DNA from: Sordariomycetes sp. S80-01Y
Lineage: Eukaryota; Ascomycota; Sordariomycetes
Length of the DNA: 64,000 bases
Reading direction: 5' to 3'
NCBI GenBank assembly: GCA_037042185.1
Contig: JAXQJY010000026.1
Span: forward strand, 496,001 to 560,000
Of the stretch, positions 957-19,759 are shown piece by piece. The translations under genes and the position numbers were made by a program. The notes beneath the pieces were generated by a model. The model did not search any database, was not told where the DNA came from, and saw only the letters and a program-made list of their open reading frames with translations. Positions within the stretch are counted from its first letter, which is position 1, and each line of letters starts with the position of its first letter.

Positions 957-2543
957 ATGGCATCTGCTCAGCCTGTCACGTCCCCGATTGCGGTCGACAA
1001 CCCTATCGATACGGCCGCCAGCCGCGATCAGAGTGACGAGAAACGCCCGTCTGCCGACATTAAGGAAGCGGCACCTTCGACTGATGGAACGCTTGGGAGA
1101 TCGGGGTGGTTTCATTGGCATGAGCCTGGCACGAGCAAAGAAGAGAAGAGGCTGATCTTCAAGCTCGATTTCTTTTTGCTCACCTTCTCATGTCTGACTT
1201 ACTTCTTGAAGCAGGTAAGCTAGTCTCCACCACAGTCTGGAATATTTCATGTTAATCAGGCGCAGCTTGACCAAAACAATGTCGCCAATGCCTATGTTAG
1301 CGGCATGGCGGACGATCTCGGGTTTGGGCCCGGCGACGAGCTCTCGTGGATGAACACCTACTTCTCTATTGGAACCATCATCGGAGGCTCTTTTGCAAAC
1401 CTCATCATTACTGTCGTTCGCCCTCGCTACTGGCTCTGCGGCTGTCTTTTCGCGTGGTCCCTCGTCGTGTTGTTCCTGTTCAAGTCACATAATGCCGCCG
1501 AGTTCTACGCTTTGCGCTTCCTCATCGGCCTTTTCGAGAGTGCCGCTTGGCCTGGTGTCATGTATACCATCGGCTGCTGGTACAGGAAGAGTGAACTTGC
1601 CCGGCGCAGTGGCCTGTTTGTGATCTCCGGCGTCATCGGCCAGATGTTCTCCGGCTATCTCCAGGCTGCGTTGTACACAGGCATGGAAGGCAAGGGTGGG
1701 CTGCCAGCCTATCGATGGCTTTTCATCTTCGACTTTATCTTGGCTATCCCTGTCGTCATCTACGGGCTGTTCACCTTCCCGGATACGCCTCACACAACGA
1801 CCGCATTCTACCTCAACGAATGGGAGAGGAAGCGAGCTTGCGAACGTATCGAAGAGGAAGGCCGCAAGCCCGTCGGCAAGATGGATTGGAGTGTCATTCG
1901 TCGCATCTTCTGCTCTTGGCAAGTGTACGCCTTCACTGTTGCCTACTCGTGCTGGACCTTGACTTGCGGCTCCTACGTAATGCAGTACTTTGGTCTGTAT
2001 CTCCGTTGGACCGAGGACTACACGGTGCCCGAGATCAACAACATTCCCACCTGTATTGGTGCTGTCAACTTTGTCGTCATGATTAGCACTGGCTACATCG
2101 CTGACAAGCTTGGACGACGATGGCCTGTGTGCCTCGTTGTCGGTTGTGTCTTGATCTTCGACTATGCGGTCCTTGCCGCTTGGGATGTTCCTCACATGTT
2201 CCGCATGGCTGTCTTTATCCTGATTGGATTCTATGGCTGCTATACCCCCTTGCTGGCCGGTTGGTGCAATGAAGCCTGCGGCGGAGATCAGCAGAAGCGA
2301 GCATTCGTGCTCGGGTTCATGGTCAGTGTTGGCCAGGCTGTCGTCATTCCCTTCCAGCAGCTGCAATTTCCGTCTTCCAAGGCGCCTCAGTTCAAAGAGA
2401 CGCACGGCTGGGGGAGTGGACTGGGCATGGTTGTGGCCCTGACGCTGTGGACCGGTATAGGTCTGCCCCTGCTACAGACTTGGGGACAGAAAAGGACGGA
2501 GGTCGTCTCGAGAACCCACGAGGATGACATTGAAGAGATTTGA
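957..2543 (+). CDS. MFS permease, anion:cation symporter (Dal5/Liz1-like) family
   Basis: Two exons, 957..1214 and 1260..2543, with a 45-nt phase-0 intron (GTAAGC...CAG), give 513 residues. Across the junction the protein reads LKQ|AQLDQNNVANAYVSG, the family signature at the end of TM1 of ACS permeases for allantoate, pantothenate and related carboxylates. About 12 hydrophobic segments follow, with a DKLGRR motif in the central loop region, and the length is normal for the family. The N-terminus is hydrophilic and cytosolic. Its divergent neighbour is an oxoprolinase/hydantoinase, so uptake of a cyclic amide or ureide is a reasonable guess, but the substrate cannot be read from sequence. An AATAAA hexamer at 2726-2731 could serve 3' processing. 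Confidence 0.88.
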
Positions 2544-2967: not shown

Positions 2968-4434
2968 TTAAAGCCTAGAAGCATGTTCCCGAGACCCAAG
3001 TCCCAGGCCCTCCATCATCTTCCCCAAAACCAGCTGATTGAAGTCATCAACCTCAGTATAGTTGTAATATGCCGAGTTATAACAAGTGTTTAGTGATAGT
3101 CTCCCTTGCCAAGTCCAGAGGAAGCATTCCAGCCATGGACCAGTCACTGTGTCCCCAAACCATACATCCTTAACATGCCATGTCCCCTTTCCACCGTTCC
3201 CAGGGTAAGTAGATTTGATGAAACTGTCAACTGCTCCAAGACTTGAAACCGCGGGCGTTGTCTCTTGCAGCTGTGCCTGGGTGAACTCTGGCACCAAGGT
3301 TCGTACCATGGGTCCCAAAGCACTCCAGACTTCGGGATCACCCTTTGGCAGATCCTGCTGATAGAAGCGTGCAAGGTCGTCCGCGATTTGAGCAAATGTC
3401 TTTCCGTTTGGCTCGACGACGCACGGAAGCACGCAGTGATGGTTCCCTATCGAGTACGAGTCTTGTGAAGGATCTGATTTACCAGAAGCAGCAAAGTATC
3501 GCCGAAGATCGAAATTACCAAACGTAGCAAGCTTTGTCCCCGCGCCTTCAGGTGCTCCCGAATTGCGCTCCTTCTGGACAGCCTGTGCGGCTAGCACTAC
3601 CGCAGCATGCCAGCTTGCAGTGACGCTCAGACGCTGAGCTTTGCAGGCACCGATGATGGCTTTGGTCAAGGAAGAGCTTGCTTTCAACTGCTCTGCCGAG
3701 TTCCGTTGCGAGCAGGGGAGTAAAGGTTGAGACACAGGTATGCAGATTGGAGAATCTATCGCTGTCAACGGCGCTAGAATCTCTTGCGCACGCTTCTCTC
3801 CCCTCCCGGGAGAACTCTCTGTCATGTTGAGGAGGTCATCTGACCGGAGAGGAAGACGAGAAACCTCGGATCCGTCAATTTGCATCCGAGGACTTCCCCC
3901 AGGCGAAGCAAGAAATCCAAAGAATCTATCCCAGAAGTTCATCAAGCCTCTCCCATCGAGAATATGGTGCTCTCCCTGAAGGAACAGCTGCTGCTCCTCT
4001 GGAAGATAGTTAAGCGTCATCTGCTTCGGCTTTACCATATTCCTCCAATGTTCAGTGGACGTTCGTCCTCGAATAACGACAAAAGTCGTGTCAAGCCAAT
4101 GTTTGAGCTCGACATCACTCAAGGGCGACTTGTACGACTTTCCATCTGACAGATTTTCGGCTGCTAACCCGGGGTACTTGTGGCGCATTTGTAACCAAGC
4201 CTCTCGCAATTGGGGAACCAAGTCGTATGAAGACACCCTGTCGCTGGCTGAGGACGGAGTGTGTTTGAAAGTAACCCAAGTAGCGATCAGAAACAGTCCA
4301 GGGGACCCGGGAGGGACCATAATGGCATTGTAAAGAACCTCTTGAAAGCCATAGGGCTGACGGTAGGTACAGGAGTCCTCCTTGGTCCAGGAGGATTCTG
4401 GGTTTAGACTTTTATCGGTCATTATGTCCAACAT
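2968..4434 (-). CDS. HHxxDG acyltransferase (BAHD/Tri3-like, condensation-domain fold)
   Basis: A single exon of 488 residues; a Met at residue 5 is an alternative start. The catalytic motif HHILDG lies at residues 156-161, matching the HHxxxDG/HxxxD active site of CoA-dependent acyltransferases related to NRPS condensation domains and to trichothecene 15-O-acetyltransferase (Tri3). The C-terminal part (WTWQGRLSLNTCYNSAYYN) resembles the terminal strands of the Tri3/alcohol-acetyltransferase branch, and length fits. There is no signal peptide. It sits in the same orientation as, and 360 bases downstream of, the dioxygenase and reductase genes that flank the hybrid synthase, so it probably O-acylates the product of that pathway; this is inference. 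A weaker alternative is an unrelated housekeeping alcohol acyltransferase. Confidence 0.8.
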   Translation of the reverse strand: MLDIMTDKSLNPESSWTKEDSCTYRQPYGFQEVLYNAIMVPPGSPGLFLIATWVTFKHTPSSASDRVSSYDLVPQLREAWLQMRHKYPGLAAENLSDGKSYKSPLSDVELKHWLDTTFVVIRGRTSTEHWRNMVKPKQMTLNYLPEEQQLFLQGEHHILDGRGLMNFWDRFFGFLASPGGSPRMQIDGSEVSRLPLRSDDLLNMTESSPGRGEKRAQEILAPLTAIDSPICIPVSQPLLPCSQRNSAEQLKASSSLTKAIIGACKAQRLSVTASWHAAVVLAAQAVQKERNSGAPEGAGTKLATFGNFDLRRYFAASGKSDPSQDSYSIGNHHCVLPCVVEPNGKTFAQIADDLARFYQQDLPKGDPEVWSALGPMVRTLVPEFTQAQLQETTPAVSSLGAVDSFIKSTYPGNGGKGTWHVKDVWFGDTVTGPWLECFLWTWQGRLSLNTCYNSAYYNYTEVDDFNQLVLGKMMEGLGLGSREHASRL

Positions 4435-4794
4435 CTAAATGACTTTTGGGCGTCTACAAAGTCACCCAGAAACACAGCTGGCGGGGCTGCTCTGGTTCCT
4501 CTGCGTTCATATAGTGCGACAAAGATCCTTTGCTGACGGGAGCATCTAGTCACATCTAGCCCTCAATCACACCACCTTGTTTCGGACTCCAGACCCTGCC
4601 AAGGGAAGTCCGAGAGGAAGCGCGGGATGCAAGGATCGGAACCCAGGCCCCAGAGGGGCAGAATATGCAAGGGTAGTCCTGAGGGGGGTGGGCTTGTGGT
4701 GGCGGTAATAACAGTTCGCCGATCGAGACCTTGAAACCGAGAACCCTGCTACATTTACTACCTCATTCGGCGCGTCTACCCGGATATCGCTATG
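4435..4794. promoter_or_regulatory. Intergenic upstream of the acyltransferase
   Basis: 360 bases between two minus-strand genes, holding the acyltransferase promoter and the dioxygenase 3' end. A C/G-rich stretch at about 4600-4710 is the only notable composition; no gene seen. Confidence 0.4.
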
Positions 4795-5652
4795 CTAACA
4801 GTGTACCTCGTCCATTTCCCCGTAGTCGCGCTTCCAGACACCGGGGCTATCCTTCAAGAACTGAGAGCGGAATCCGAGCATGCGCTGGGCCCGGGGTGTC
4901 AGAGTCCTCGCCAATGCCCGGTCAACGAGGAAAGGGTGCGCCTCTTCCGGAGTAAGGTACGAGCACTGGAAGACGAGAGCTATCCCCCTTCTTATGGAGT
5001 CATCCGTTGTGTTAGCCCCTCCCCCATGCACAACCTTGCCTGTTATGAAGACAGCATCTCCGGGCTCCATCTCCGCCGGAAGAGTGTCGGCCGGTGAGCC
5101 ATTCTCGGCAAGATTATCCCATTTGTGGCTGCCAGGAATCACCCGCGTCGCACCGTTGTCCGCGGTGAAGCTGGACAAGGCCACGATGAAGTTCACACTA
5201 GCTTCAGGCGCCTCGGGCCCGCAGTAGGTGAAGATGGGAAATTGCCACTGGTCGCGGTGCAGAGGTTGAGCCACAGCGCCGGGTCCTACATCGATGACTT
5301 GGGCAGTATTCATCCAGTAGCCACCTGCGTCTTTGAGATAGATCTCCTCGCAAATCTCATGGATTAGATTGTTCTCCATGATCTCCTCGCGGAAGGTCTT
5401 GCTCAGGGTGACGACATTGAGCAATCGCTTCGTAGCTGAGCCATGAAATTCCCGCACCCATTCGTTGTCGTGTTTGGACCCTGTACCAAGATGGTCCATG
5501 GCTGGCTGCACGTCCTGGTTCAGACGCGCAACTTGATCTGGGCTAATCAATCCCTTGATTATCACCGCGCCATCGTTCCGAATTGCTTTAAGCACTGCAC
5601 CACTGCCCGCAGACGCTGGCACACGCTGCAGCTGCGTCGCTTGATGAGACAT
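4795..5652 (-). CDS. PhyH-type Fe(II)/2-oxoglutarate dioxygenase (SwnH-like)
   Basis: An intronless 285-residue protein of the phytanoyl-CoA dioxygenase family. The iron triad is visible: H132 and D134 in LHRDQW, H209 in KVVHGGG, with R222 placed to bind 2-oxoglutarate. The jelly-roll strands between them (VNFIVALSSFTADNGATR, then VIPGSHKW) are typical of fungal secondary-metabolite members such as FtmOx1 and the SwnH1/SwnH2 enzymes, which hydroxylate or oxidise indolizidines. Its place beside an NmrA reductase and a SwnK-type synthase supports a tailoring role in that pathway. I cannot decide from sequence whether it matches SwnH1 or SwnH2. No targeting signal is seen; it is probably cytosolic. 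Confidence 0.87.
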   Translation of the reverse strand: MSHQATQLQRVPASAGSGAVLKAIRNDGAVIIKGLISPDQVARLNQDVQPAMDHLGTGSKHDNEWVREFHGSATKRLLNVVTLSKTFREEIMENNLIHEICEEIYLKDAGGYWMNTAQVIDVGPGAVAQPLHRDQWQFPIFTYCGPEAPEASVNFIVALSSFTADNGATRVIPGSHKWDNLAENGSPADTLPAEMEPGDAVFITGKVVHGGGANTTDDSIRRGIALVFQCSYLTPEEAHPFLVDRALARTLTPRAQRMLGFRSQFLKDSPGVWKRDYGEMDEVHC

Positions 5653-5951
5653 GCTGAGAATAGAGCAGAATGAAGAGGATAAAAGCTAATTTGTCACAAA
5701 ACGAGTGATATAGCTTGGTGCAGAGCGTCGTTATATTCTCAAAAAGTTGACGTCTTCTGCTAATCTTGCTATGTTGGGAAGCTTTGGGTGCGGTTACATT
5801 GACGCGGTCAGCATGTAACCCTCCCTGAAATACGACCCTGGTACTTGCATTCTCTAAGGCTTAACTAGCTAGGTATGTACACGCACTGCTAGTCTTGCGG
5901 TAATAGTCAGTAAGTCCTTAGCCGCCCCGAACCTCATCCGCGCGGTCTAGA
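5653..5951. promoter_or_regulatory. Short intergenic region upstream of the dioxygenase
   Basis: 299 bases holding the dioxygenase promoter and the 3' end of the reductase gene; AT-rich near the middle, with no clear element. Confidence 0.35.
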
Positions 5952-6999
5952 TCACGTACCCCATGCTTCCTGGATGACTTCCTCGATGCGCCTTGGGGGT
6001 GGAGCCTTATCCTTGAACAGCTCGACAAGGTTAACATGCTCATTGGTCTGTTCGAGATCATACGCGCCTAGCGCGACACCTGCTTCCAGATCGGCGACCA
6101 AAGCTCGGACCTGCTCAAGTCCGCCCGGGAAACGCTCTGGATACTGGCTAGCCACTTCCACATTGGATGGCAAGTCAATGGTCTTATGCTGGAGTAAGTC
6201 CTCCACAGGCTGGTAGGTGATTTCAATGTTGTGGCCAAGAGTTGACTCCACGATCTTGACAAGCACGTTCAACGAAACCGTGTTTGCCACTGCCTTCAAG
6301 ACGCGTGGCCACTTGTCCAAATCGAGTGCCATGACAAGGTAGCGTGCAGCATCCGTCGTAAATGTCATACTCATCCGGCCTTCGCCATCCCCTGGTAGCA
6401 CGGCCCGATGATGAGCAGGATCGAGGAAAAAGTACAGGGGACGGAGGGTGCTCGCCACTCTGGGCAAGCCGAAGTAGTCCATGAACATGCCGGGGTAGAA
6501 GTACGTATACTCGAGAGTAGTAGTGTTCCTTTCCAGTTCTCGTCGAGCAACGATGTGGAACTTCTTCTCCGGGTATGGGAGGACGTGATCGCCAACATCG
6601 TATTCCACGTTGAATTCGGATGGAATGAAGCGGGTGACGCTCTCCGCTCGTTCGGCGGCTCGGATCAACTTCACCTGAGCCTCTGAAGCCGAGTCGCTGT
6701 CCATAATTAGGGCAGAGATGACAACTTCTACTGATCGTGCCGAGAGCTCGGCCGTCAAACTCTCTTGGGAGTAGTCAGTTTCGACGATGGATGGTACCCG
6801 CTCTGTTGCGGCAGTCAAATTCTGGGCACGCGCATCGTTCTTCTACATTACTGGTTTGTCATCCTGTCTTAAATGCGTTTCTTGGACGACTGACCTTCCT
6901 AGAGAGTACGAAAACGTGGTGTTTGCTGCTTGCGACCAAGGCCTGCACGATGAGGCGACCGATGTCGCCGAGACCGCCTGCAACTGCGACAACAACCAT
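5952..6999 (-). CDS. NmrA-like NAD(P)-dependent reductase (SwnN/SwnR-like)
   Basis: Exons on the minus strand are 6999..6895 and 6842..5952, split by a 52-nt phase-0 intron (GTCAGT...TAG), giving 331 residues. The first exon supplies the Rossmann loop AGGLGDIGR (residues 7-15) and the second beta-strand ending VFVLSRK; without it the long open frame would lack a cofactor site and begin at a TTG. The second exon has the NmrA/isoflavone-reductase landmarks RFIPSEFNVEYD, the K of PYPEKKFHI and FYPGMFMDYFGLP. The family uses NADPH to reduce imines, ketones or enones. It is divergent from the synthase start by 655 bases, the arrangement seen for swnN or swnR around swnK; which of the two it matches is undecided. 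Confidence 0.87.
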
Positions 7000-7654
7000 G
7001 ATGCTTCGATGTACTGTGAGAATCTTGTCGATGATGATGAGGGGTGATGGATAAGCGGATTAATGCCATTGCAGTGCTGATTTATACCTCAAACTTGAGA
7101 AACGACGGACAAACGCCTGTGCCTGCTGATGAATACGGCTAGATCTCCGGCATCACACGACCCTTGACGATGCAGGAGACATAGCAGGACTATCTCCTAT
7201 TTAGGATTAATAAGCTTACAGAACTACGATGGCTATCACAAGGGATTACCCGCGTTGCCGCCGTCAGCCCCTGTCCAACCCCTCTTCTTCTTCAAGCTCA
7301 AATTGGCTGTAACTCATCGTCGAATCACGCTCCCACCCCTGATAAAGTCCGAGGAGGCGAATTAAGACGGGTCTCATCATCATGTAGCACATGTAACTTC
7401 TTCTTAAAGAGTCAAGATCACTGTCACACATACAGAGAAACCTCGGTGTGGCTATGTCAGGGTCGTAATGGGAATCTGACTGTCTCTGCACTGAAGCTGG
7501 CTTGATCTACAGGCATATGTAGCTTGAAGAAAGCTGGAATATCATTTCAAGGAGCCCCATCACGCGGAAGGGCATTTAGAGGGCAACTATTAAAACGTAT
7601 GAACAATTCATCAGGCTACCGCATTGCCGCCACTGGCAACGACCAAACACCGAC
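7000..7654. promoter_or_regulatory. Bidirectional promoter of reductase and hybrid synthase
   Basis: 655 bases between two divergent start codons, presumably co-regulating the tailoring genes and the synthase. No TATA box stands out near the synthase start. No protein-coding sequence is supported here. Confidence 0.5.
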
Positions 7655-10600
7655 ATGCACCATCTTTCACAGCGAGACCCCATGGATGTGGCCAAACCTG
7701 CTCCTAGCGAAAAGACCGATATTTCGACGCTTGGACAATGTACGCACAGGCTATTTGAAAATGCTGCCCGCGAACATAGCAGCCAGACTGCTCTGATTTG
7801 TGGCGAGGCCACAATGACTTTTCACGACTTGAATGCTAAGGCGAACCTCCTTGCTAGAGCATTGATCACCCGAGGGATCACCCACGGAGATGTTATCGGC
7901 GTCTACTTGGATCGATCTATCGATCTGATAGTGGCTTTACTGGCCGTCATGAAAGCAGGGGCCACTTATGTGCCTATTGATACTGCTCTGCCATCGGAAC
8001 GAATCAACACAATGATCGCAGATGCCTGCCCAAAGCTTGTCGTCACTGGCCACAACATTCCCGACGCATCAAATATACCCATCCCATTGGACACAAGCTC
8101 ATATGCCCGCATATCAGATCTCACACGCCAATTGCTGTCTTCAGACGAGGCTGACACTGGCAACATCAACGCTTCTGACGATCCGAGCAGTCTCGCATAC
8201 ATCATGTACACTTCAGGCTCTACAGGCCAGCCAAAAGGTGTCGAGGTTTCCCATGGAAGTGTGGCGAATTTATTATTATCGATGCAAAAAGACCCTGGAT
8301 TTAGTTGCTTCGATCGACTCCTCGCTGTCACCACAGTGTCTTTTGACATGGCAGTTCTTGAGATATTCCTGCCACTGATATCGGGTGGTATGGTGGTCAT
8401 AACACAAAGACATGAGCAGACAGACCCGATCGCCATTGTCAATCTCATGATTCAGCACGATATAAACATCATGCAAGGAACCCCGGCAATCTGGCAAATC
8501 CTGCTAGATTCGGGCTGGGATGGCAATCCCCGCCTCGATAAAATCCTTTGCGGCGGCGAAAGGCTACCCCGATCACTAGCAGATCGTCTTTTGAGGTGCG
8601 GCGATCACTTCTGGAATATGTACGGGCCAACCGAGGCAGCAGTCTATGCAAGCATATGGAAGGTGGAAAGGAGCCAAGAGATTGTTGTGGGGAGTTCTGT
8701 TACGAATTGTCGACTTTACGTGCTTGACGACAACTTGATACCTGTTCCCCCTGGATCGCCAGGAGAACTCTACATTGGTGGCGCTGGCGTGGCGCGAGGG
8801 TATCGGAACAAAGAACAACTCACTAGCTCGCGGTTTCTGCAAGATCCTTTTCACGACGGCCAGATGTACCGTACCGGAGACCTAGCTTGCTTGATTGGTC
8901 CAGACAAGCTGAGCATACTTGGCCGCATAGATGATCAAGTGAAGATCCGAGGGCATCGAGTCGAGCTTGGTGAGATCGAGAACGCTTTAGCCGAGTTGGA
9001 TGTGATATTGGGAGCCGTAGTCATCCTCCGTGCTGAGCGACTGATAGCCTACTACATGTCCAGGAAGAACACCAGCATTGACACCCCTATTCTACGAGAA
9101 TGGCTGGTGCGGAGACTACCAGCGTATATGGTCCCTGCATTCTTTGTCAGGATACAATCATTTCCTTTGAATACCAATGGGAAGATTGATCGCAAAGCCC
9201 TACCCGACCCGGTGGTTTCGATTACGGCCTCTTCGGCAACCGCACCGACAGCGTCACAGCTCTATGGATCAGAACTAGAGCAGTCTTTGGCCGCGATCTG
9301 GTCTTCAACTCTGGAGCACAACCAGTTCGGTATCTATGACAATTTTTTCGAAGTTGGTGGGGACTCAATGCGCCTAATTCGGGTGCAAACAGAGCTAAGA
9401 TCCCTGCTGGATCGGCGTGTCCCAGTGGCGAAGCTATTCGAGAACTACACTATAGCAAAACTGGCGTCGTACTTGAAAGACATCCAAGCGGAGGAGTCAA
9501 AAGTGTCAGAAGTCACGATTGCAGAAGAGAGTGAGTGTCGGTCCAAGACTGGAGAAGAAGACATTGCGATCATCGCAACGGCATGTCGCCTGCCTGGGGG
9601 AATCACAACACCAGACGAGTTTTGGACGTTGCTCGACAATGGAGACGAATCCATTACTGACGTGCCTGAGGGCAGATGGGGTGATGATGACCAGAAAGAT
9701 TCTTCCTACTGTCGCAAGGGTGGCTTCATATCTCGGGTGCACGACTACGACACCAGCTTCTTCGGCATTTCCCCACGAGAATCTCGGATGCTCGACCCAG
9801 CCCAATACATGATGCTTGAGACATGCTGGGAAGGATTTGAACGTGCCGGCTATACCTTGGAAAGCCTACGTGGCAGCGAAACGGGCACGTACATTGGTAC
9901 AAGTAATATTCTGGCTCACCTCCCTCTGAATCCAGCCGCCTGCAGAAATACCTCTGAACTCGACGGATACACAGCCACAGGTTCAGCCGGCGGGACTATG
10001 TCGGGTCGAATTGCCTATCAGTTAGGGCTTGAAGGCCCGACCATGACTGTAGACACAGCATGTTCTTCGTCGTTAGTCTCAACACACCTCGCGTGCACGG
10101 CCCTACGGCAGGGCGAATGCGACTTGGCAGTGTCCGGAGGCGTCAGTCTCATGCTGAATCCTGGTTTGCATGCCGAATTCGATCTTCTGAACGGAATGTC
10201 TCCAGACGGCAGATGCCGGGCATTCTCTGCCGACAGTCAAGGCACCGGGTGGGCAGAAGGCTCCGCGGCGGTCATCCTCAAGCGAGTTTCCGATGCCAAA
10301 CGTGACGGTGACACAATTCATGCAGTCATTCGCGCAACTGCTGTTAACCACGACGGCCGCAGTGCAACTTTGACTACTCCAAGGCAATCAGCTCAATCGC
10401 GTCTCATTCGCAAAGCCCTGAGCTCGGCCCAACTTCAGCCGACTGACATCGACTACATCGAGGCTCATGGAACCGGCACTCGACTTGGGGATCCTATTGA
10501 AGCTTCTGCGTTAGCTGAGGTTTTCGCCACTGTTAGCCGAAAAAGAAAAGACTTATTGCATATTGGTTCTGTCAAGTCTAATATCGGACACACACAAGCC

Positions 10601-13600
10601 ACTGCTGGTCTAGCAGGCCTTTTGAAAGTGGTGCTTTCCATGCGCAACAACAAGCTACCTAAGAGCCTTCACATAGCTCAACCAACTCCGGCAGTGGACT
10701 GGGAACAAGCCAATATGCTTCCCGTCCTGGAAGCTAGACCCTGGCTACCACAGCAGCAACGACAGCGCCGTGCTGGCGTAAGTGCCTTCGGCATCGGAGG
10801 GACCAACGCCCACGTGATCATCGAAGAAGCGCCAGTGCCTGCATCCATGGGCAATGCCACGGCTCTTTTCTCCACGAAGTCAGTCCCAACCGTGACAGTC
10901 AGACCTATCCCATTTGTTCTTTCAGCGGACACCGATGCAGCTCTGAGTGGACAGGCGAGGAAGCTCCATGAATACATTGGCAGTATCGCTGATGACAACA
11001 TGTCTTCTCTCTTCGATGTTGCCTTCTCACTTGCCAATACTCGCACGCATTTTCGAAGAAGGCTTGTAGTGGTGGCAAAAGACAAAGCAGACTTGTTGGA
11101 GAGATTGGATGCAACTATAAATGTCTGTGCCACGGCTTCCTTGGTGAAACAGCCTTTTGTTGCTAGTTCATCCTCTTTGGAGCCACCTAAAATTGCCATG
11201 GTTTTCACGGGCCAAGGCAGCCAATGGCCGGGAATGGGCAAAGAGCTGTCGGAGACATACCTGTTGTTCCGAGATACGATTTATGATATCGAGACACGAT
11301 TCTCAGAACTAGACGTGCCGCTAACAAAAGTTATGTGGGCTGAGCCAGATACTGCCTCTGCCTACCTCCTGGATCGAACGGATTATGCACAGCCCGCCTT
11401 ATTTGCTCTAGGCGTGGCGCTATGCAGGCTATGGCAGAGCTGGGGTGTTAGCCCGCACCTTGTTCTTGGCCACAGTCTGGGTGAGATAACCGCTGCTCAC
11501 GTCGCTGGCGTTTTTGATCTTTCAGATGCCTGTAGGCTTGTTCATGCCCGAGCCCGGTTGATGCAAGGCATGCAGCTTGAAGATCTGAAGATGATCTCTC
11601 TCGAAGGCACAGCCAAGGAAGTACAAGAGGCTATCTCCGAACTTGACCTGCGGAGCCAAATTGAGATTGCTCTATACAACTCACCTAACCAGACGGTCAT
11701 CTCTGGTCGCAAGGAGGCAGCGGACGAAGTGGCCGACAAGTTTTTGCGTCAAGACCGCAAAGCAAAGACTGTAACAAGAGGTCAAGCTTTTCACTCACGC
11801 TACATGGACTCTATGCTTGAAGAATATAGGTCTGTAGCCGATACGATCAACTTCAGAGATCCCAGCATTGGCTTGGTCAGCAGTCTAGACGGCACTCTGG
11901 CGGTGCCGGGTCAAGTGAATCAAGCGAGTTATTGGACGAGACAGGCCCGCGAGGCGGTCCGTTTCGCAGACGGTGTTGAAAAAATTACTAAATATGGTAT
12001 CAATATGTTCCTAGAAATCGGCCCCCGACCAATCTTGTGCGGGTTGGGCGCAGCATGCCTCGATGGTAGACAAGAAAGCGGGAGGGCACCAGCCTCTTGG
12101 TTGCCCTCGTTGAGCCACAACAAAACCACTTTGGATAGCAGTTGGATGACTCTCTATGGAAGTGCATCCACATTGCACAAGCTAGGTGTCGCGTTAGATT
12201 GGGATGCACTTTTCAGCCCGTATGCTTGTCATCGTGTGGAGCTGCCCACCTATGCCTTCCATCGGGACTTCGACGCCACGCCAAAGGCAAAGACCAAGTC
12301 AATCGATCCTTATAGACACTCGGAGCAAATACCTGACCTACGTTTCGAGGTCATGTGGCAGAAAGCAGAGATGGGACGAGGGTTCCCTACTGGAACTTGG
12401 GGTTTGCTACCCCCTAGCACAGACACGGCCTGGTCAAGCAGCGTGTTTCGGTCCTTGTCGCATGCTGGCAGGCATTTTGTTAAAGTTTCAAATATCCATG
12501 GAAATGAGGAGTTGCAGGGCCTGATCTCTATATGGGATCCTGATGTTAGCAACACTTCGGAGTTGCAAGGATGCCTTGGTGAAGCTTTGAAGCAGCTTCA
12601 AGTTGCCGCCCAAACCCCATCATCTCCTCCCATAATTTGGATCACTCACCATGCGATTGGAACTGGTAACAAAATTCATGATGATGGAATGAGAGTCGGA
12701 GCTTCGCCCTTATTGGGCCTCATGCGAACGGTCAGAAGTGAGCATCCGGAGATGAATGTGCGCTTGATTGATCTGGTCGACTGTCAGGACGCATTATCAA
12801 TCGCATCAACTCTGGCGCAAACTGCGGAACCTGAATGCGCGATACGGGAACAGGCGGTCTTGGTACCACGCATGCAAAGAGCTAGGGCATCGGAAACTGA
12901 CCGGGAGAATCGTACGCTGTCAAGACGCCATCTTATCCGTCCGGATGGAGCGGTGCTGATAACCGGAGGCCTGGGATACCTAGGGAAGTGCTTGGCTCGA
13001 TGGCTCACCAGAAAGCACGGCGTCCGTGATCTACTCTTGACATCGCGAAAGGGCCCGGAGACTCCTGGTGCGAGTGAATTTGTCAGAGATCTGTCACATC
13101 AGGGCTCCAACTCGCAAATCTCCGTGGAGATAGTGGCAGGTGACATTGCCGACCCCTTTTTCGTGAAGACCATAATGGCAAAGTTCAGCGATCAACGACC
13201 TCTGAGAGCGGTCTTCCATGCGGCTGGAGTCTCAGATTCTGGACTTCTTGCGTCCTTGACGCCTGAACGCTGCCTGAATACCCTCAACCCCAAAGCTCTT
13301 GGTGCGTGGGCCCTGCATCAGGAAACGCAGCACCTAGACCTGGACGTCTTCTTCCTTTTTTCGTCCATATCGGGGGTTATGGGCATGCCAGGCCTTGCCA
13401 ACTACGCTGCCTCCAATACCTTCCTTGACGCACTAGCCTACAGTCGCCAGGCTCAAGGCCTCCCTGCAACATCGGTAGCTTTTGGTACTTGGGCTGGCGA
13501 CGGTATGGCTTCTGAACTCGGTCGAAGCACTCTTGCCCACCTCAATCAGTTTGGACTACATCATTTGACGCCTGATGAGGGCTTGAATATCATTCAACAG

Positions 13601-15262
13601 TGTCTTGCCGAAGCTGCACCTCTTACCGTGGGTGCCGCGTTGGATCTGAAGCAACTAAGCATCTATGCCACGTCACAGGGAGGTATACCGTCGCTCCTCA
13701 ATGTACTTCTGGATGGAAAACTTGAAGAGACCGGTTCGAAAAAAAGTCTTCACGAGCTTCTTTCGCAATCAGAAGAAAACGAACATCCGGATATCGTCCT
13801 ACGTATGGTGCGCGAAGTAGTGGCTAGCGCCTTAGGCCATACCCATGCTGAGCGTTTGGATGTCGATTGCCCTTTGCAAAGTATCGGGATCGATTCTTTG
13901 ACAGCAGTGCAGACAAGAAATCATCTTGCGACGCTGACTGGGCTGGTTTTATCCGTCAATGTGGTCTTCCATCATCGCACACTGCGCGCCCTCAGTCAAT
14001 ACCTGCAGTCGCAGCTGCTACGCGACATATCCACATCGCCATCGATGGCCTCATCAGAAGTTGAGACTGAAGCAACATCTGTACAACAATTTCATGCATC
14101 GAATACGGATGCCATGTGTAGAGGTTGTCTTGATGATAGTTTCATGTTCAACAACATCAGCACTTCTCCTACGGGGGCCACCTCGGTCCTACTCACAGGA
14201 GCGACAGGCTTTGTTGGCGCATTCATCCTCGATGGTCTTTTACGGAAAGGTATCGAGGTGTATGCAATTGTGCGTGCCAACAACACCGACGAGGCACGGA
14301 AGCGTTTGGAAAGCATTTTGGAAAGCTACGGGCTGTGGGATCCCGGCTTTGCATCACTTTTGAAACCCCTGATAGGGGATATTTCCAGGCCGTTACTTGG
14401 TCTGCCTGACGAAGAATTTCATAATTTGGCTCAAGTGGTCAATTCGATATGTCATTCTGGCGCGCTTGTTGACTGGATGCGTCCGCTAGAAGATTACGTC
14501 GGACCAAACATCATCAGCACCCACGAGGTCCTACGGTTAGCTTCATATGGCCGTGCTAAAACCGTCCACGTCATATCCACCATGTCTACGCTTCCCAAGC
14601 ACCTGGGATTTGACTTGACAGAGAAGGATCCAGAATATGGGTATGGAACATCGAAGTACGTCGCGGAAAGACTCGTAGCAGCAGCTCGATGGCGCGGAGC
14701 CAATGCTTCGGTATATCGCCTGCCGTATGTCACCGCATCCACCTCGACTGGACACTTCCGCCTTGATCGAGGAGATTTCTTGCACAACATGTTTGTCGGA
14801 AGCCTGCAGATGGGAGCATTGCCCCAGGTTGGGGGTGCAGACATGTCCGCAGTCTTGCCTGTCAACTACCTAAGCGAAACTGTCGTCAGACTTATGATGG
14901 ATGACGCGCAAGTACGAGGACAAGACTACGACTTCCGTAACATGCGCGCCCCGACTTGTGATGTCTTCTTCAAAACCCTTGCGGAAGAAGCCGGTCGCCA
15001 TACGAAATTGGTGCCTTTTGGTCAATGGAAACAGTTGGCGGCGGAACAGGCCTCCCAAAACCCTCAAAGTCCTTTGGCTCGCATATTTTCTGTGCTCGAC
15101 AATTATACTGATGAGACTGCGATTAATTTGTTCAAGGCTTTGCCGCCTGGAGAGCACGTGTTGGGCGGCGCTGAATACCCTGCGCCTGAACTCGGGGCAT
15201 CTTTTGCAGCCATCTACGCCAAGCGAATAGGCCTTTGCTCAGTATTCGAAACAACTGGATAA
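7655..15262 (+). CDS. swnK: SwnK-type hybrid NRPS-PKS, A-T-KS-AT-KR-T-R
   Basis: One uninterrupted 2535-residue frame. Domains in order: adenylation (about 29-518; YTSGSTGQPKG, YGPTEAA, YRTGDL, NGKIDRKAL); carrier with phosphopantetheine Ser571 (GGDSM); ketosynthase (about 636-1059) with C803, H938, H979; malonyl-type acyltransferase with Ser1274 in GHSLGE and QAFHSRYM; ketoreductase (about 1760-1945; TGGLGYLG, Y1917); carrier Ser2081 (GIDSL); C-terminal thioester reductase (TGATGFVG from about 2178, Y2330xxxK2334). No condensation, dehydratase, enoylreductase or methyltransferase domain is seen. This is the swainsonine synthase architecture: load an amino acid (pipecolate in SwnK), extend once with malonyl-CoA, reduce, and release an aldehyde that cyclises. 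The symbol marks the type; orthology and product are unproven. The second Met, at 7682, could be the start. Confidence 0.88.
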   Translation: MHHLSQRDPMDVAKPAPSEKTDISTLGQCTHRLFENAAREHSSQTALICGEATMTFHDLNAKANLLARALITRGITHGDVIGVYLDRSIDLIVALLAVMKAGATYVPIDTALPSERINTMIADACPKLVVTGHNIPDASNIPIPLDTSSYARISDLTRQLLSSDEADTGNINASDDPSSLAYIMYTSGSTGQPKGVEVSHGSVANLLLSMQKDPGFSCFDRLLAVTTVSFDMAVLEIFLPLISGGMVVITQRHEQTDPIAIVNLMIQHDINIMQGTPAIWQILLDSGWDGNPRLDKILCGGERLPRSLADRLLRCGDHFWNMYGPTEAAVYASIWKVERSQEIVVGSSVTNCRLYVLDDNLIPVPPGSPGELYIGGAGVARGYRNKEQLTSSRFLQDPFHDGQMYRTGDLACLIGPDKLSILGRIDDQVKIRGHRVELGEIENALAELDVILGAVVILRAERLIAYYMSRKNTSIDTPILREWLVRRLPAYMVPAFFVRIQSFPLNTNGKIDRKALPDPVVSITASSATAPTASQLYGSELEQSLAAIWSSTLEHNQFGIYDNFFEVGGDSMRLIRVQTELRSLLDRRVPVAKLFENYTIAKLASYLKDIQAEESKVSEVTIAEESECRSKTGEEDIAIIATACRLPGGITTPDEFWTLLDNGDESITDVPEGRWGDDDQKDSSYCRKGGFISRVHDYDTSFFGISPRESRMLDPAQYMMLETCWEGFERAGYTLESLRGSETGTYIGTSNILAHLPLNPAACRNTSELDGYTATGSAGGTMSGRIAYQLGLEGPTMTVDTACSSSLVSTHLACTALRQGECDLAVSGGVSLMLNPGLHAEFDLLNGMSPDGRCRAFSADSQGTGWAEGSAAVILKRVSDAKRDGDTIHAVIRATAVNHDGRSATLTTPRQSAQSRLIRKALSSAQLQPTDIDYIEAHGTGTRLGDPIEASALAEVFATVSRKRKDLLHIGSVKSNIGHTQATAGLAGLLKVVLSMRNNKLPKSLHIAQPTPAVDWEQANMLPVLEARPWLPQQQRQRRAGVSAFGIGGTNAHVIIEEAPVPASMGNATALFSTKSVPTVTVRPIPFVLSADTDAALSGQARKLHEYIGSIADDNMSSLFDVAFSLANTRTHFRRRLVVVAKDKADLLERLDATINVCATASLVKQPFVASSSSLEPPKIAMVFTGQGSQWPGMGKELSETYLLFRDTIYDIETRFSELDVPLTKVMWAEPDTASAYLLDRTDYAQPALFALGVALCRLWQSWGVSPHLVLGHSLGEITAAHVAGVFDLSDACRLVHARARLMQGMQLEDLKMISLEGTAKEVQEAISELDLRSQIEIALYNSPNQTVISGRKEAADEVADKFLRQDRKAKTVTRGQAFHSRYMDSMLEEYRSVADTINFRDPSIGLVSSLDGTLAVPGQVNQASYWTRQAREAVRFADGVEKITKYGINMFLEIGPRPILCGLGAACLDGRQESGRAPASWLPSLSHNKTTLDSSWMTLYGSASTLHKLGVALDWDALFSPYACHRVELPTYAFHRDFDATPKAKTKSIDPYRHSEQIPDLRFEVMWQKAEMGRGFPTGTWGLLPPSTDTAWSSSVFRSLSHAGRHFVKVSNIHGNEELQGLISIWDPDVSNTSELQGCLGEALKQLQVAAQTPSSPPIIWITHHAIGTGNKIHDDGMRVGASPLLGLMRTVRSEHPEMNVRLIDLVDCQDALSIASTLAQTAEPECAIREQAVLVPRMQRARASETDRENRTLSRRHLIRPDGAVLITGGLGYLGKCLARWLTRKHGVRDLLLTSRKGPETPGASEFVRDLSHQGSNSQISVEIVAGDIADPFFVKTIMAKFSDQRPLRAVFHAAGVSDSGLLASLTPERCLNTLNPKALGAWALHQETQHLDLDVFFLFSSISGVMGMPGLANYAASNTFLDALAYSRQAQGLPATSVAFGTWAGDGMASELGRSTLAHLNQFGLHHLTPDEGLNIIQQCLAEAAPLTVGAALDLKQLSIYATSQGGIPSLLNVLLDGKLEETGSKKSLHELLSQSEENEHPDIVLRMVREVVASALGHTHAERLDVDCPLQSIGIDSLTAVQTRNHLATLTGLVLSVNVVFHHRTLRALSQYLQSQLLRDISTSPSMASSEVETEATSVQQFHASNTDAMCRGCLDDSFMFNNISTSPTGATSVLLTGATGFVGAFILDGLLRKGIEVYAIVRANNTDEARKRLESILESYGLWDPGFASLLKPLIGDISRPLLGLPDEEFHNLAQVVNSICHSGALVDWMRPLEDYVGPNIISTHEVLRLASYGRAKTVHVISTMSTLPKHLGFDLTEKDPEYGYGTSKYVAERLVAAARWRGANASVYRLPYVTASTSTGHFRLDRGDFLHNMFVGSLQMGALPQVGGADMSAVLPVNYLSETVVRLMMDDAQVRGQDYDFRNMRAPTCDVFFKTLAEEAGRHTKLVPFGQWKQLAAEQASQNPQSPLARIFSVLDNYTDETAINLFKALPPGEHVLGGAEYPAPELGASFAAIYAKRIGLCSVFETTG

Positions 15263-15627: not shown

Positions 15628-16185
15628 TCAAACCAGTGGCTTCTTCAGCACTCTGAAGTACAAGTCGTCTCTCGACGGAGTGCCGTTCTCCAGCTGTCCG
15701 TACGGGAAGGGCCTCTTCTCATCTGTCTTCACATACCCCCTCCTCTCGTACCATGCCATCAACTCTTCCCTCGTCCAAATGACGCTCATTTCCATAGTCT
15801 TGACACCCATCTCCTCCTTTGCGTACCTCTCTGCCTCGTTCATCACGCTCTTCCCAATCCCGCCAGATTGTCTCTGCGGATCAACCGCAAACAGCCCAAA
15901 GTAGGCATAGTCATTCTGCTTCAACAGCTCGCAGCAAGAGGCAAGTTGGCCCTGCTCGTCATGGGCGAGGACGATGGCACCGCCAGGGGTATTGATCTTT
16001 TCCGCAACCCCGGCGGGGTTGATACGCGTGCCACCCACCAAGTCAGCCTCGGTTGTCCAGCCGGCACGGGATGATTCGCCACGGTAAGCAGAGTTGACCA
16101 GCTTGGTGATGGAATTCAGATCTTCCTCGCCTGTCGTGGCGATGCGGAATGTAAGGGGTGTGGGTTGGGGCGCGGAGTGAGGCAT
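15628..16185 (-). CDS. GNAT-family N-acetyltransferase
   Basis: A single exon of 185 residues with one Gcn5-related acetyltransferase domain. The acetyl-CoA loop (motif A) is QRQSGGIG at residues 104-111, preceded by the strand AYFGLFAVDP and followed by WYERRGY, the usual motif B region. It has no signal or membrane segment and is probably cytosolic. Substrate unknown. It lies tail-to-tail with the synthase, so membership of that pathway is possible but not suggested by orientation or by known swn clusters. Confidence 0.85.
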   Translation of the reverse strand: MPHSAPQPTPLTFRIATTGEEDLNSITKLVNSAYRGESSRAGWTTEADLVGGTRINPAGVAEKINTPGGAIVLAHDEQGQLASCCELLKQNDYAYFGLFAVDPQRQSGGIGKSVMNEAERYAKEEMGVKTMEMSVIWTREELMAWYERRGYVKTDEKRPFPYGQLENGTPSRDDLYFRVLKKPLV

Positions 16186-16721
16186 TTTGGCGAAAGATTT
16201 GTTGAAGGTGTGCGAATGTTCGGGTACCGCGGAGGTTTGGTGAAGAAGAGAATTGTTTATGTACAGCTCACGCGTTGCGATGAAACTATTTGAAGATTCT
16301 CCTTCTAGACGAGGGCAGGCTTGACATCGTTCTTGTACGATGAGGTGTCAACTCAAATCATCATTCGGCTCTAGTTGGTCGGCGATATCGGTGTCCGTTA
16401 GCTTCGATGCGGTTCTCCCCACACGATGTCAGTGACATCCCGCATGCAAAGGGCGCAGAAAACGACATCTATTGACATGACATGAAATCCCCGTTTCAAA
16501 ACACCGTGGCCTAAAAAATGGATGTTCAGGATATCGCGGCCATTTTGTTTGTTTCTCACTTCACATCGCGCCAGCACAATGGAGGCTTAGGCTCCGGTGT
16601 CGGCACAGGAGTCACCAACCAGTGGATTTGCGACAAAATAGGTACTTTGAAATTGGTTCATGAAAGAAAAGAATGAATATCCGTTCCCGCCACAAAACGT
16701 CAAGACCCATTTCCAAGCATC
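16186..16721. promoter_or_regulatory. Intergenic upstream of the GNAT gene
   Basis: 536 bases with the GNAT promoter and the 3' end of the RGS gene. No repeat or coding sequence recognised. Confidence 0.4.
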
Positions 16722-18562
16722 TCAGACAGACTCAATCGAATCCATCGATGATCTCCTCTCCCTCACGAACTTCGGCCACGTGTTCGTCAATACCAAGTAT
16801 TTTATACTCGCTTCCGCCTCCTCGAACACCCTGTCATGGAAGCTATCCGGAATTTCCCCAACGAACCTTGGCTTGGCTGCAGTTGGCGACGGGGGAGTGA
16901 CTATCGTAGTCTCGGAGCCTGCTTTGGATGCCTTCGAGTCATGGGAGCCCTTTCGCTGCCACGGTGTCGAATCGAACGGAGTAGCAGGATTTGAGTCTAA
17001 CGGGCCGCCTAGGACTAACCGAGCAGCGTCTTCGAAGGTTGTTTCGAGCTTCTTGAAGATAGGTGAGGGGAGGTTGACTTGGAACTGTGCGTGGGAGCTG
17101 ATGTAGTCGGCGTAGATTTTCAACGCCTTCATGAATCGCTCCTGACGTAGGTTGACGTTGTTGTTCAGGTCCTCCACCAGCTTCTCGGGGTTGCACGACT
17201 GCCGTGTTGGCGGCGGTAGCATGGCCTTCCATTCAGATACGGCCATCAAGAACGCGATGTTCTCTCCAGAGAAGTCTCTCAATGCGGAGAACTCCAAAAG
17301 AGGTCCAGGGTTGCGCTCGAGCACATGGTCTAGAGCACCCATGGTCAGGATGCTCTCATGCGACTCGGACTTGTAGCTGCCGTCCATCGACTTCTGCCCT
17401 GTGACGATCGAGTCCACTGCAGTAGAGCTTGAAAGTACGGACTTGTTGCCGATGATAACAGGCGACTTGTTGTTGTTCTCCCATTGCGCGATGGAGTCGA
17501 GGGTTTCTTGTTTTAGCGTCTGGTGTTGCACGACTTGCCAACAGGGCACGAAGATTGTGAAGATCTCAATGAATACGATGGAAACGGCGATCCTGTGCAT
17601 GTCAGCTCAGATCTTGAGGAATTGCATCTCTCTCATCATACCATTGGGGCGGAATAAAGTACTCGTTCACCTTTTCCATCTGGGGTAGGTAGAGCGCAAT
17701 AAGCCACATGGGTGTCGCATGCAGACTGGCAATGCAGCAAGCGACTGTTTGTAGTCTCCACCCTTGCGTATCATGGATACCACGAGACTGCCATAGGATG
17801 ATGGGAGCGACAATCCAGGCCCAGAAGACCTGCCAAAAGACTGAGGGCCACCTTTGAAGAGCAGTTAGCAACGTTCGCAATCGGTGATGGAAGCTTAACC
17901 TACCACTCCCAACCTCTACCCATGTTGGTCTTCCTCTCCATGCGTGTGTCGCCGTCCACTTCGGTCCCTGGAATACCCCAGCCACCGTGCCATTTCCTCG
18001 ATAACACATACATGAGGACTGTGACGAAGATCTGCAAGTGGTTAGTACGTTGTGCCCGTTGGAATGTGGCCGAGAGGATACCCACCTGGAATACCATTCC
18101 AGCACCAACAAGGAGGAAGACCTTCCTCGTGTGACTTTGCCTGCGGAAGCGTGCCAACCATCCTTTCTGTGATGGCTTTGGCTTCTCATCAGTTTTCTGC
18201 ACAAAGCGCCGTTGCTTCTTCGCGATGTGCAGGAAGCGCGAGTTGGAAGCGTGGAAGAGCGCAATGCCTAGAGGCAGCCACGTCCCCATAATCCAGTACT
18301 CTGCATCACCTGGCATGACGGGGCCAGTCATGTACCCCAGCTGGACCGAGATGAAGTAGCAGTGCAGGAAAGCGACTGCGCAGAAAGATAGCAAGATACC
18401 TCGTATCCGAAGCACGGGACTGTCGCGTCGACGATAGAGGAAGATGGCGCCGACGGCCAGGCACAGCGTCCACGCGCAGGCGAAGACGCCGTAGAAGATG
18501 GCCAAGCCATCGAGCTTGAGCTCGTGCGGCGTGTCAGCCGTCAGGCCAAGTTCGGATCCCAT
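16722..18562 (-). CDS. Seven-transmembrane protein with C-terminal RGS domain (GprK-like)
   Basis: Minus-strand exons 18562..18086, 18031..17904, 17851..17642 and 17592..16722 give 561 residues. Seven hydrophobic segments are seen, from [20 protein letters not shown] to [18 protein letters not shown]; the fourth forms only when the 54-nt first intron is removed, joining GAGMVFQ to [10 protein letters not shown]. That intron carries a TACTAAC branch site but is in frame and free of stops. The RGS domain lies in the C-terminal half ([24 protein letters not shown]), the part that speeds GTP hydrolysis by G-alpha. This is the fungal class VI GPCR-like layout. Role in signalling is inferred from family; there is no obvious link to the neighbouring pathway genes. 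Confidence 0.88.
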
Positions 18563-19759
18563 AATGAAGGAGTGTCGTGGTCGGATGGGAGATCGTGGGG
18601 AGGCTCAGTCCGAAGGGAGGGGGCGTCGCGATGTTAAGAGCACCATCGCTCCAGGTACGGATGCGTGATCAAGGCGGAGGAGGACTACGGGACCGAAAGT
18701 GGGCTCAGGTGTGCTAGGGCGCCTTTTGCTTTTGAGCCATCGTCAAGGTGCCGTGTGTGGGTGGGCACCGAAGCCTGGACGGTGTTGGTCGATGCCGGGA
18801 ATGAATGTCTTGCAAGTGTCTCTGGCTAGGGCCATTCGGTAGGCTCTGCGGCGAATGAAGATTCGAGGTGCCTGAGAAAGGTGAGCTTTCAAGCCCCAGA
18901 GACCCGCAAGGCTCACCGTCAGGGTTCCCTGTCACATACGATCTTGACACTGCGACTCGACTGGTCAGGCGGGCACGACCGCAGGAGTGACAATGCACGA
19001 TTCACATCTGCCATTTGCCGTGATGACGGTAGGTTCCCGGCGGGACGATCGACGCCTTAGGGCCCTGTCAGCAGGGGGGGAAGATCCGGCAACAGATCTT
19101 AGCGCCGCAGCTCGAGATGAGGCCCCGCACCGGAAAAGAAAACATCGTCAGCTTCCCGTCCGGCCGGTGATGAGACACGGCAAAGGTCATGCTGAAGGAT
19201 CTTGAGCCGCTGTGTCTCTAGATTTCGAGGTAAACTTGCGGCAACAACTGTTGCAGAAGTCTCCGACTGTCGCAAGAACTCCGTGAGAGGACCACGCTTG
19301 GTGTCCAGCTTGGATGAGAGCCGTACGTCCGAGAAGAGATGGTGCTCATCTCCCCTGCATGTTGGTTGGGTCATTTCTCCAGTCTGCTGGAGCCCCCTTG
19401 CGGTGGTCACCCACGTCCGCAGAAGCAATGTCATCCCTGAGCGCAATCAATGATACGATTGCCGAGACATGACGCGAGGATCTCTTAGAGCGCATCTCGG
19501 GAATAGCATCTGTGATGACCTTGCCTTTCTCACATTCTGAGAAGAGCTGAGAGCGGTGACACACACAGGAATCAATCGTGCATTCACAGACAGGCGTTAG
19601 ATGCACCTTGTGACAAGGTTCCCGCATTTGCCCAGCCGCTCGGTCACGCATTTCAAATATTAAGGTTTCGTTTATTATTATGAAGGGTAAGGCGTGGTAG
19701 CCATTCGTGTTCGACGCATCCATAGATTCATGGGTAGCGCCAGTCTCCTCTGCCATTTC
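18563..19759. other. Intergenic, 1.2 kb
   Basis: Holds the promoter of the RGS gene and the 3' flank of the lipase gene. Several short open frames on both strands overlap one another and match nothing I recognise. Confidence 0.4.

What the first reader, a model, noticed from the sequence alone, without database searches (positions are those of the whole stretch)
2968..15262. Compact SwnK-type cluster: hybrid synthase with NmrA reductase, PhyH dioxygenase and acyltransferase
The A-T-KS-AT-KR-T-R order is seen directly in one 2535-residue frame, and a PhyH dioxygenase and an NmrA reductase sit beside it. Established knowledge: this combination defines swainsonine (SWN) clusters, where SwnK loads pipecolate, extends it once and releases it reductively. 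Inference: this genome can make an indolizidine-like or related bicyclic alkaloid.
Basis: partly seen in the sequence, partly recalled or inferred. Interest (0 to 1): 0.85.

Follow-up and report, generated by a model that had tools for sequence, protein, structure and literature searches.

The report
SwnK-like alkaloid cluster, not swainsonine
A fungal four-gene cluster that looks like the one for the alkaloid swainsonine belongs to a separate, uncharacterised sister family with its own acyltransferase, so it probably makes a different, acylated small cyclic amine.

Summary
In detail: an intron-free 2535-aa frame (7655-15262) encodes A-T-KS-AT-KR-T-R with the catalytic residues checked, and an NmrA reductase, a PhyH-type 2OG dioxygenase and an HxxxDG acyltransferase are divergent from it. 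The reading 'swainsonine (SWN) cluster, pipecolate-loading' is not supported. The dioxygenase resembles EasH (225 bits), not SwnH1 (96) or SwnH2 (72). The A-domain specificity loop is one residue longer than in SwnK (15 residues in 66 of 66; SwnK 14 in 66 of 67). The acyltransferase has a TRI3-type fold, and its family pairs with this clade: 16 of 54 homologues share a contig length with an own-clade synthase, none with 92 other listed synthases. Best reading: a conserved, uncharacterised SwnK-like cluster making an O-acylated, hydroxylated pyrrolidine- or indolizidine-type amine; the amino acid is unknown. The clade was probably noticed in 2021 as 'SwnK-like1'; I found no product assigned in the held papers.

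The parts
7655..15262 (+). NRPS-PKS hybrid synthase, 2535 aa, A-T-KS-AT-KR-T-R, no intron
   Evidence: Pfam; catalytic residues T1 S571, KS C803/H938/H979, AT S1274/H1380, KR S1903/Y1917/N1921, T2 S2081, R T2309/Y2330/K2334; 99% and 86% homologues P0002, P0003
8615..8659 (+). A5 specificity loop of the A domain (residues 321-335), one residue longer than in SwnK
   Evidence: 15 residues in 66 of 66 own-clade rows, 14 in 66 of 67 SwnK-clade rows, the 67th being a gap
5952..6999 (-). NmrA/isoflavone-reductase-like NAD(P) reductase; exon 1 6895-6999, then one intron, main exon 5952 to about 6821
   Evidence: Pfam NmrA on the main exon; start and splice signals located (acceptor not fixed); 52-69% identical to the NmrA half of 8 relatives' NmrA-acyltransferase proteins
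4795..5652 (-). PhyH-type Fe(II)/2-oxoglutarate dioxygenase, 285 aa
   Evidence: Pfam PhyH; best solved relative EasH 225 bits, SwnH1 96, SwnH2 72; HxD here aligned with HxE of EasH, distal His aligned
2968..4434 (-). TRI3-like/condensation-fold acyltransferase, 488 aa, HxxxDG motif
   Evidence: AlphaFold pLDDT 90.5; Foldseek top match TRI3 3fot E 1.5e-22; H156, D160, G161 invariant in 39 rows
7000..7654 (.). 655-bp divergent intergenic region between the NmrA gene and the synthase (possible shared promoter)
   Evidence: coordinates; function not tested
1224..2543 (+). MFS transporter beside the acyltransferase; membership of the cluster not shown
   Evidence: Pfam MFS_1 E 3.9e-35 on 1224-2540

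Best explanation
This is a member of a conserved, chemically uncharacterised fungal cluster family related to, but not part of, the swainsonine family. Proposed working: the A domain loads one amino acid (a small one, or a cyclic imino acid) on T1. KS-AT adds one malonyl unit, KR reduces the beta-keto group, and R releases a gamma-amino-beta-hydroxy aldehyde, which closes on its own nitrogen to a five-membered cyclic imine or iminium. The NmrA enzyme reduces that C=N to a 3-hydroxypyrrolidine (or 1-hydroxy-indolizidine/pyrrolizidine if the amino acid is cyclic), the EasH-like dioxygenase hydroxylates a carbon, and the TRI3-like acyltransferase puts an acyl group on a hydroxyl. SHOWN: gene content, domain order, intact catalytic residues, separate clade, TRI3-type fold (predicted model), repeated pairing of synthase and acyltransferase on contigs of equal length. 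INFERRED: every chemical step, their order, and the amino acid.
For: Architecture and residues. Separate clade: 166-row tree, KS tree of 45 chosen rows 100/100, A-domain tree of the same rows SH-aLRT 99, AU p 0.0071 for the window and P0003 held with 15 SwnK-side rows. Identity 47.6-52.3% to 67 SwnK-clade rows, against 63.5-99.2%, mean 73.9, among 12 reference SwnK rows. Different tailoring: EasH-like dioxygenase, TRI3-type acyltransferase. Locus tags EPUS_05757/05760 and PFICI_07789/07792 leave room for two genes between synthase and acyltransferase, as here. NmrA and acyltransferase are annotated as one protein in 8 of the 54. The SwnK pathway logic is from PMC5473758 and PMC11477355.
Against: No product is known to me for any member. 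The A code (DMLQLGMVYK) agrees with SwnK codes at 7 of 10 positions (commonest) or 8 of 10 (second), so pipecolate loading is not excluded. Contig lengths are a proxy for linkage: 38 of 54 acyltransferase hits had no match, and both synthase lists were capped at 120. The 8 fused proteins may be merged gene models: the junctions differ and lack the acyltransferase's first 12-25 residues. The dioxygenase was not seen directly in relatives. Having one dioxygenase is not decisive alone: 3 of 36 species in PMC9030584 lack swnH1. SwnN is proposed to reduce a ketone, not an imine, so the NmrA step may differ. The short loop also occurs outside the SwnK clade, so it is no unique SwnK mark.
Confidence: 0.72

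Rival explanations
1. A true but reduced SWN cluster: the synthase loads pipecolate and the cluster makes swainsonine or a near relative.
For: Same domain order; NmrA and PhyH neighbours; A code identical to SwnK codes at 7 or 8 of 10 positions. SWN clusters do lose genes in some species (PMC9030584).
Against: Outside the SwnK clade; about 50% identity against >70% between orthologues in PMC5473758 (in my alignment 47 of 66 reference pairs exceed 70%); dioxygenase not SwnH-like, no second one found by tblastn at E 1e-3; no second reductase in the 40 frames scanned (not every frame); A5 loop of different length.
Confidence: 0.07
2. Sub-case of the best explanation: the amino acid is pipecolate or proline, giving an O-acylated hydroxy-indolizidine or -pyrrolizidine (slaframine-like chemistry: slaframine is 1-acetoxy-6-aminooctahydroindolizine).
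For: Acyltransferase, hydroxylase and reductase are three tailoring types that slaframine would need (inference); M236 and Y331 of the code are shared with SwnK, and 11 of 67 SwnK-clade codes agree at 8 of 10 positions. PMC5473758 expects a SwnK paralogue for slaframine.
Against: Loop length agrees with the bacterial and NPS7 relatives, not with SwnK; no aminotransferase among the frames scanned (not every frame).
Confidence: 0.36
3. Sub-case of the best explanation: the amino acid is small (glycine or alanine type), giving an acylated hydroxypyrrolidine.
For: Window code agrees at 8 of 10 positions with DILQLGMVWK of the 3 bacterial and 10 of 12 NPS7-clade rows, and at 7 of 10 with DILQLGMIWK, reported as glycine-activating (PMC12283262); DILQLGVI is predicted for glycine in nocamycin (PMC5466765). 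Same loop length as those rows.
Against: The substrates of the bacterial and NPS7 rows are themselves unknown. The code agrees with SwnK about as well. W331 to Y and I236 to M change the pocket, and code prediction across fungal and bacterial A domains is unreliable.
Confidence: 0.36
4. The four genes are merely neighbours and not one pathway.
For: Co-expression could not be tested; the dioxygenase was not traced in relatives.
Against: Acyltransferase and synthase share a contig length in 16 cases, and the NmrA and acyltransferase homologues are annotated as one protein in 8.
Confidence: 0.06

Closest known systems
Swainsonine (SWN) cluster, SwnK
   Same: Synthase domain order A-T-KS-AT-KR-T-R; an NmrA-type reductase and a PhyH-type dioxygenase nearby
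   Different: Synthase in another clade at about 50% identity; one EasH-like dioxygenase instead of SwnH1 and SwnH2; no SwnR or SwnA type among the frames scanned; extra TRI3-like acyltransferase; A5 loop one residue longer
SwnK-like1 and SwnK-like2 subclades (PMC7864672)
   Same: Same domain order; SwnK-like1 is said to be flanked by SwnN and SwnH, the types found here; probably this clade
   Different: Their member list is in a supplement I could not open, so identity with SwnK-like1 is inferred. SwnK-like2 probably equals my NPS7 clade (inferred from the classes of its best hits), most rows of which carry DILQLGMVWK
Slaframine (Slafractonia leguminicola), cluster not assigned
   Same: An O-acetylated cyclic amine would need a SwnK-like synthase, reductase, hydroxylase and acetyltransferase (inference)
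   Different: Needs an amination step; no aminotransferase among the frames scanned; Slafractonia 'SwnK-like protein 1' (P0078) lies in the NPS7 clade, not in this one; its second paralogue was not found by name in my lists
TRI3 trichothecene 15-O-acetyltransferase
   Same: Fold of the predicted model (Foldseek E 1.5e-22, TM 0.74/0.72) and HxxxDG (motif recalled for the family)
   Different: 17% identity; different pathway and substrate; no Pfam Tri3 hit for this protein
EasH / AusE / PrhA fungal 2OG dioxygenases
   Same: Family and iron-ligand positions; 225, 210 and 208 bits
   Different: Their substrates (recalled: ergopeptide lactam, meroterpenoids) are unrelated to this scaffold

Membership tests
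SWN (swainsonine) cluster | Synthase with A-T-KS-AT-KR-T-R | tested here: met
SWN (swainsonine) cluster | Synthase in the SwnK orthologue clade, >70% identity between orthologues (PMC5473758) | tested here: not met
   47.6-52.3% to 67 clade rows; separate clade; AU p 0.0071
SWN (swainsonine) cluster | swnH1 and swnH2 dioxygenases | tested here: not met
   One PhyH, which scores 96 bits to SwnH1 and 72 to SwnH2 against 225 to EasH; no second relative by tblastn at E 1e-3
SWN (swainsonine) cluster | swnN, NmrA-type reductase | tested here: inconclusive
   An NmrA is there; no SwnN sequence could be obtained, so orthology is untested
SWN (swainsonine) cluster | swnR second Rossmann reductase (elsewhere in the genome in some species) | tested here: inconclusive
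   None in the 40 frames scanned (not every frame of the window); the rest of the genome could not be searched (genome search did not complete)
SWN (swainsonine) cluster | A5 loop of 14 residues (marker found here; also seen in other clades) | tested here: not met
SWN (swainsonine) cluster | Swainsonine production | not testable with these tools
   needs LC-MS; even SWN-clade species have been reported without detected swainsonine (PMC8403587)
SwnK-like1 subclade (PMC7864672) | Tree position and flanking SwnN/SwnH types | tested here: inconclusive
TRI3-like O-acyltransferase | Fold and HxxxDG | tested here: met
   (predicted model)
TRI3-like O-acyltransferase | Acyl transfer to a hydroxyl | not testable with these tools
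   needs an enzyme assay
PhyH-type Fe(II)/2OG dioxygenase | HxD/E...H iron ligands in a PhyH domain | tested here: met

The most novel reading that the evidence does not exclude
A widespread fungal cluster family (synthase, NmrA reductase, 2OG dioxygenase, dedicated TRI3-like acyltransferase) makes a class of O-acylated, hydroxylated monocyclic pyrrolidines from a small amino acid plus one malonyl unit. SwnK arose beside it when its A domain lost one residue of the specificity loop and switched from glycine-type substrates to pipecolate.
Probability: 0.27. Interest if true: 0.68.

Novelty: new variant of a known kind. Interest (0 to 1): 0.46.

Why it matters
Such synthases can be labelled 'SwnK' (a Paramyrothecium protein in this clade is named so), which suggests a livestock toxin. 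Clade, loop length and the acyltransferase partner together give a quick way to tell the families apart. If the pairing holds, a conserved alkaloid family present in many Sordariomycetes still lacks a product, and the switch of A-domain specificity to pipecolate becomes testable.

Tried and rejected
Relatives with context in genome contigs: one weak Clostridiales hit (21% over part of the A domain, L001), not useful. Pfam gave no name above threshold for the 488-aa protein and a PDB sequence search found nothing; the fold did. Nine paper searches gave me no product for this clade; that says nothing about papers not held, and most listed papers were seen as listings only. I considered the GNAT protein (15631-16347) and the second TRI3-like protein (26201-27802) as cluster members and left them out: nothing I saw ties them to the synthase. 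SwnN orthology could not be tested for want of a sequence. Of 180 synthase-like proteins 14 were dropped before the tree (11 over 2800 aa, 3 under 2290 aa; three bacterial rows over 2800 aa were kept as outgroup); the 180 come from two lists capped at 120. The KS and A trees used 45 rows that I chose.

Full report
WHAT IS THERE. The window is fungal in character: the synthase's named relatives are fungal apart from a few bacterial entries and one Quercus suber entry, and the NmrA gene has an intron. The synthase is an uninterrupted frame at 7655-15262. Pfam finds AMP-binding, two PP-binding stretches, ketoacyl synthase, acyltransferase, ketoreductase and thioester reductase; no DH or ER domain is listed. 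The catalytic residues checked are present, as they are in nearly all relatives. On the other strand, read away from the synthase, lie the NmrA reductase (start 6999, one intron), a single-exon PhyH dioxygenase (4795-5652) and a single-exon 488-aa protein (2968-4434).

THE FOURTH GENE. The 488-aa protein has no Pfam match above threshold (PapA_C E 0.048) and no sequence match in the PDB up to E 1. With 39 aligned sequences (the window's and 38 of its 54 homologues; the 8 NmrA fusions and 8 partial ones were left out) AlphaFold gives pLDDT 90.5. Foldseek's best PDB match is TRI3, a trichothecene 15-O-acetyltransferase (E 1.5e-22, TM 0.74/0.72, 17% identity), followed by mannosylerythritol-lipid acyltransferases and NRPS condensation-type folds. 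H156, D160 and G161 of an HxxxDG motif are invariant in the 39 rows.

IT IS NOT THE SWAINSONINE CLADE. The closest proteins are two unnamed database entries at 99% (P0002) and 86% (P0003), then a drop to 59%. A search with Slafractonia SwnK (P0099) returns a SwnK group at 63-82% identity; P0002 and P0003 are not among the 120 listed. In a FastTree tree of 166 rows the reference SwnK rows fall in a clade of 67 (support 0.93), with Slafractonia, the Chaetothyriaceae endophyte, Alternaria oxytropis, Metarhizium and Arthrodermataceae; the window falls in another of 66 (support 1.0), whose named members (39 rows bear a name) are mostly Xylariales, Sordariales and Hypocreales. An IQ-TREE KS tree of 45 chosen rows gives the window's group 100/100 (the bootstrap had not fully settled), and a quick A-domain tree with the specificity loop removed gives SH-aLRT 99. 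Holding the window and P0003 with 15 SwnK-side rows costs 64.9 log-likelihood units, AU p 0.0071. The window is 47.6-52.3% identical to the 67 SwnK-clade rows; 12 reference SwnK rows are 63.5-99.2% identical to each other, mean 73.9, 47 of 66 pairs above 70%. Cook et al. give >70% for SwnK orthologues and 53-55% for the two Slafractonia paralogues (PMC5473758, parts 1-3 of 4 read).

THE DIOXYGENASE. SwnH1 (9osa) and SwnH2 (9otb) are in the PDB, so the relation can be tested. The window enzyme scores 225 bits to EasH, 210 to AusE, 96 to SwnH1 and 72 to SwnH2; HxD of the window aligns with HxE of EasH, and the distal His aligns. tblastn at E 1e-3 finds no second relative in the window. Of 36 species compared in PMC9030584 (parts 1-2 of 6 read) all have swnH2 and all but three swnH1, so a missing swnH1 alone would not exclude a SWN cluster.

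THE AMINO ACID. The ten-residue A-domain code, placed by motifs recalled from the literature, is DMLQLGMVYK in the window and in 19 of 66 own-clade rows, the window included. SwnK-clade rows read DMLQIGV-YK in 54 of 67 and DMLQLGV-YK in 11; the 3 bacterial rows, 10 of 12 NPS7-clade rows and 1 own-clade row read DILQLGMVWK. The stretch around position 330 is 15 residues in 66 of 66 own-clade rows and 14 in 66 of 67 SwnK-clade rows, the other being a gap. The short loop is also in the rows next to the SwnK clade and in 8 of 9 rows of a third group (Purpureocillium, Ophiocordyceps, Dactylonectria, Ilyonectria; the ninth unreadable), so the deletion either happened twice or was reversed in the window's clade. 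DILQLGMIWK is reported for glycine-activating domains (PMC12283262, passages) and DILQLGVI is predicted for glycine in nocamycin (PMC5466765, one passage). The window agrees with DILQLGMVWK at 8 of 10, with DILQLGMIWK at 7, and with the two SwnK codes at 7 and 8. The code alone therefore does not decide; loop length points away from SwnK. I hold a small amino acid and a pipecolate/proline-type one as about equally likely.

A CONSERVED CLUSTER OF ITS OWN. A search with the 488-aa protein passed 54 proteins at E 1e-5, 51 of them 40% identical or more, some over part of the length (7995 candidates scored). For 16 of the 54 the longest contig has exactly the length of the contig of an own-clade synthase (63 with a length); none matches the 92 synthases outside that clade in my two capped lists (hypergeometric 1.5e-7, rows not independent). 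38 of 54 had no match, which may only mean a different representative contig. In Endocarpon (EPUS_05757, EPUS_05760) and Pestalotiopsis fici (PFICI_07789, PFICI_07792) the numbering leaves two genes between synthase and acyltransferase, as in the window. In 8 of 54 an NmrA domain 52-69% identical to the window's is annotated in one protein with the acyltransferase; the junctions vary and drop the acyltransferase's start, so these may be merged gene models, but they put the two genes side by side.

HOW IT LIKELY WORKS. By analogy with SwnK, for which Cook et al. predict a released hydroxy intermediate that cyclises to an iminium, the synthase should make a gamma-amino-beta-hydroxy aldehyde that closes to a five-membered imine. 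The NmrA enzyme would reduce it (SwnN is proposed elsewhere to reduce 1-oxoindolizine, PMC11477355, passages), the dioxygenase would hydroxylate it and the acyltransferase would acylate a hydroxyl. All of this chemistry is inference.

WHAT IS KNOWN. A Marssonina paper (PMC7864672, passages) already describes SwnK-like1 and SwnK-like2 subclades without any experimentally supported member, the first flanked by SwnN and SwnH; the window's clade is probably SwnK-like1 (inference). PFICI_07789 is listed in the P. [quoted passage not shown] Two Xylariales genome papers report SWN clusters without detecting swainsonine (PMC8403587, PMC13293291, passages), so cluster presence and product must be kept apart. 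I found no product for this clade in the held papers. What seems added here is the dedicated TRI3-like acyltransferase, the EasH-like identity of the dioxygenase and the loop length; I could not see the Marssonina figure, which may show some of it.

LIMITS. The whole genome could not be searched, so a separate true SWN cluster elsewhere is not excluded. The organism was not identified. No expression or chemistry was available.

Noticed in passing
window 26201-27802 (-): A second TRI3-like acyltransferase (Pfam Tri3 E 0.0016, below cut-off), 25% identical to the cluster's acyltransferase; no sign seen that it belongs to the cluster.
   Followed up: partly
window 31361-61898: Sugar-use genes near each other: GH2 exo-glucosaminidase-like pieces, Dak1/Dak2 kinase, class II aldolase, GH36 melibiase, sugar transporter, GH1, and a Zn2Cys6 regulator.
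   Followed up: no
window 15631-23356: Downstream of the synthase: a GNAT acetyltransferase, an RGS-domain protein, a possible 7TM receptor piece (7tm_3, below cut-off) and a Zn2Cys6 piece.
   Followed up: no
protein P0078 (Slafractonia SwnK-like protein 1): It has the code DILQLGMVWK (close to a reported glycine code) and lies in the NPS7 clade, which sits awkwardly with the suggestion that a SwnK paralogue makes pipecolate-derived slaframine, unless that is the other paralogue.
   Followed up: partly
protein P0044 (Paramyrothecium 'swnK'): Named SwnK in its source but lies in the window's clade, not the SwnK clade: a likely misannotation.
   Followed up: partly
proteins P0048, P0049, P0051, P0068, P0070, P0075, P0087, P0094, P0104: A third group of Hypocreales synthases, 8 of 9 with the short A5 loop of SwnK (one unreadable) but other codes such as DMMQLSL-YK and DMLQLTL-IK: a further group without a product known to me.
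   Followed up: no
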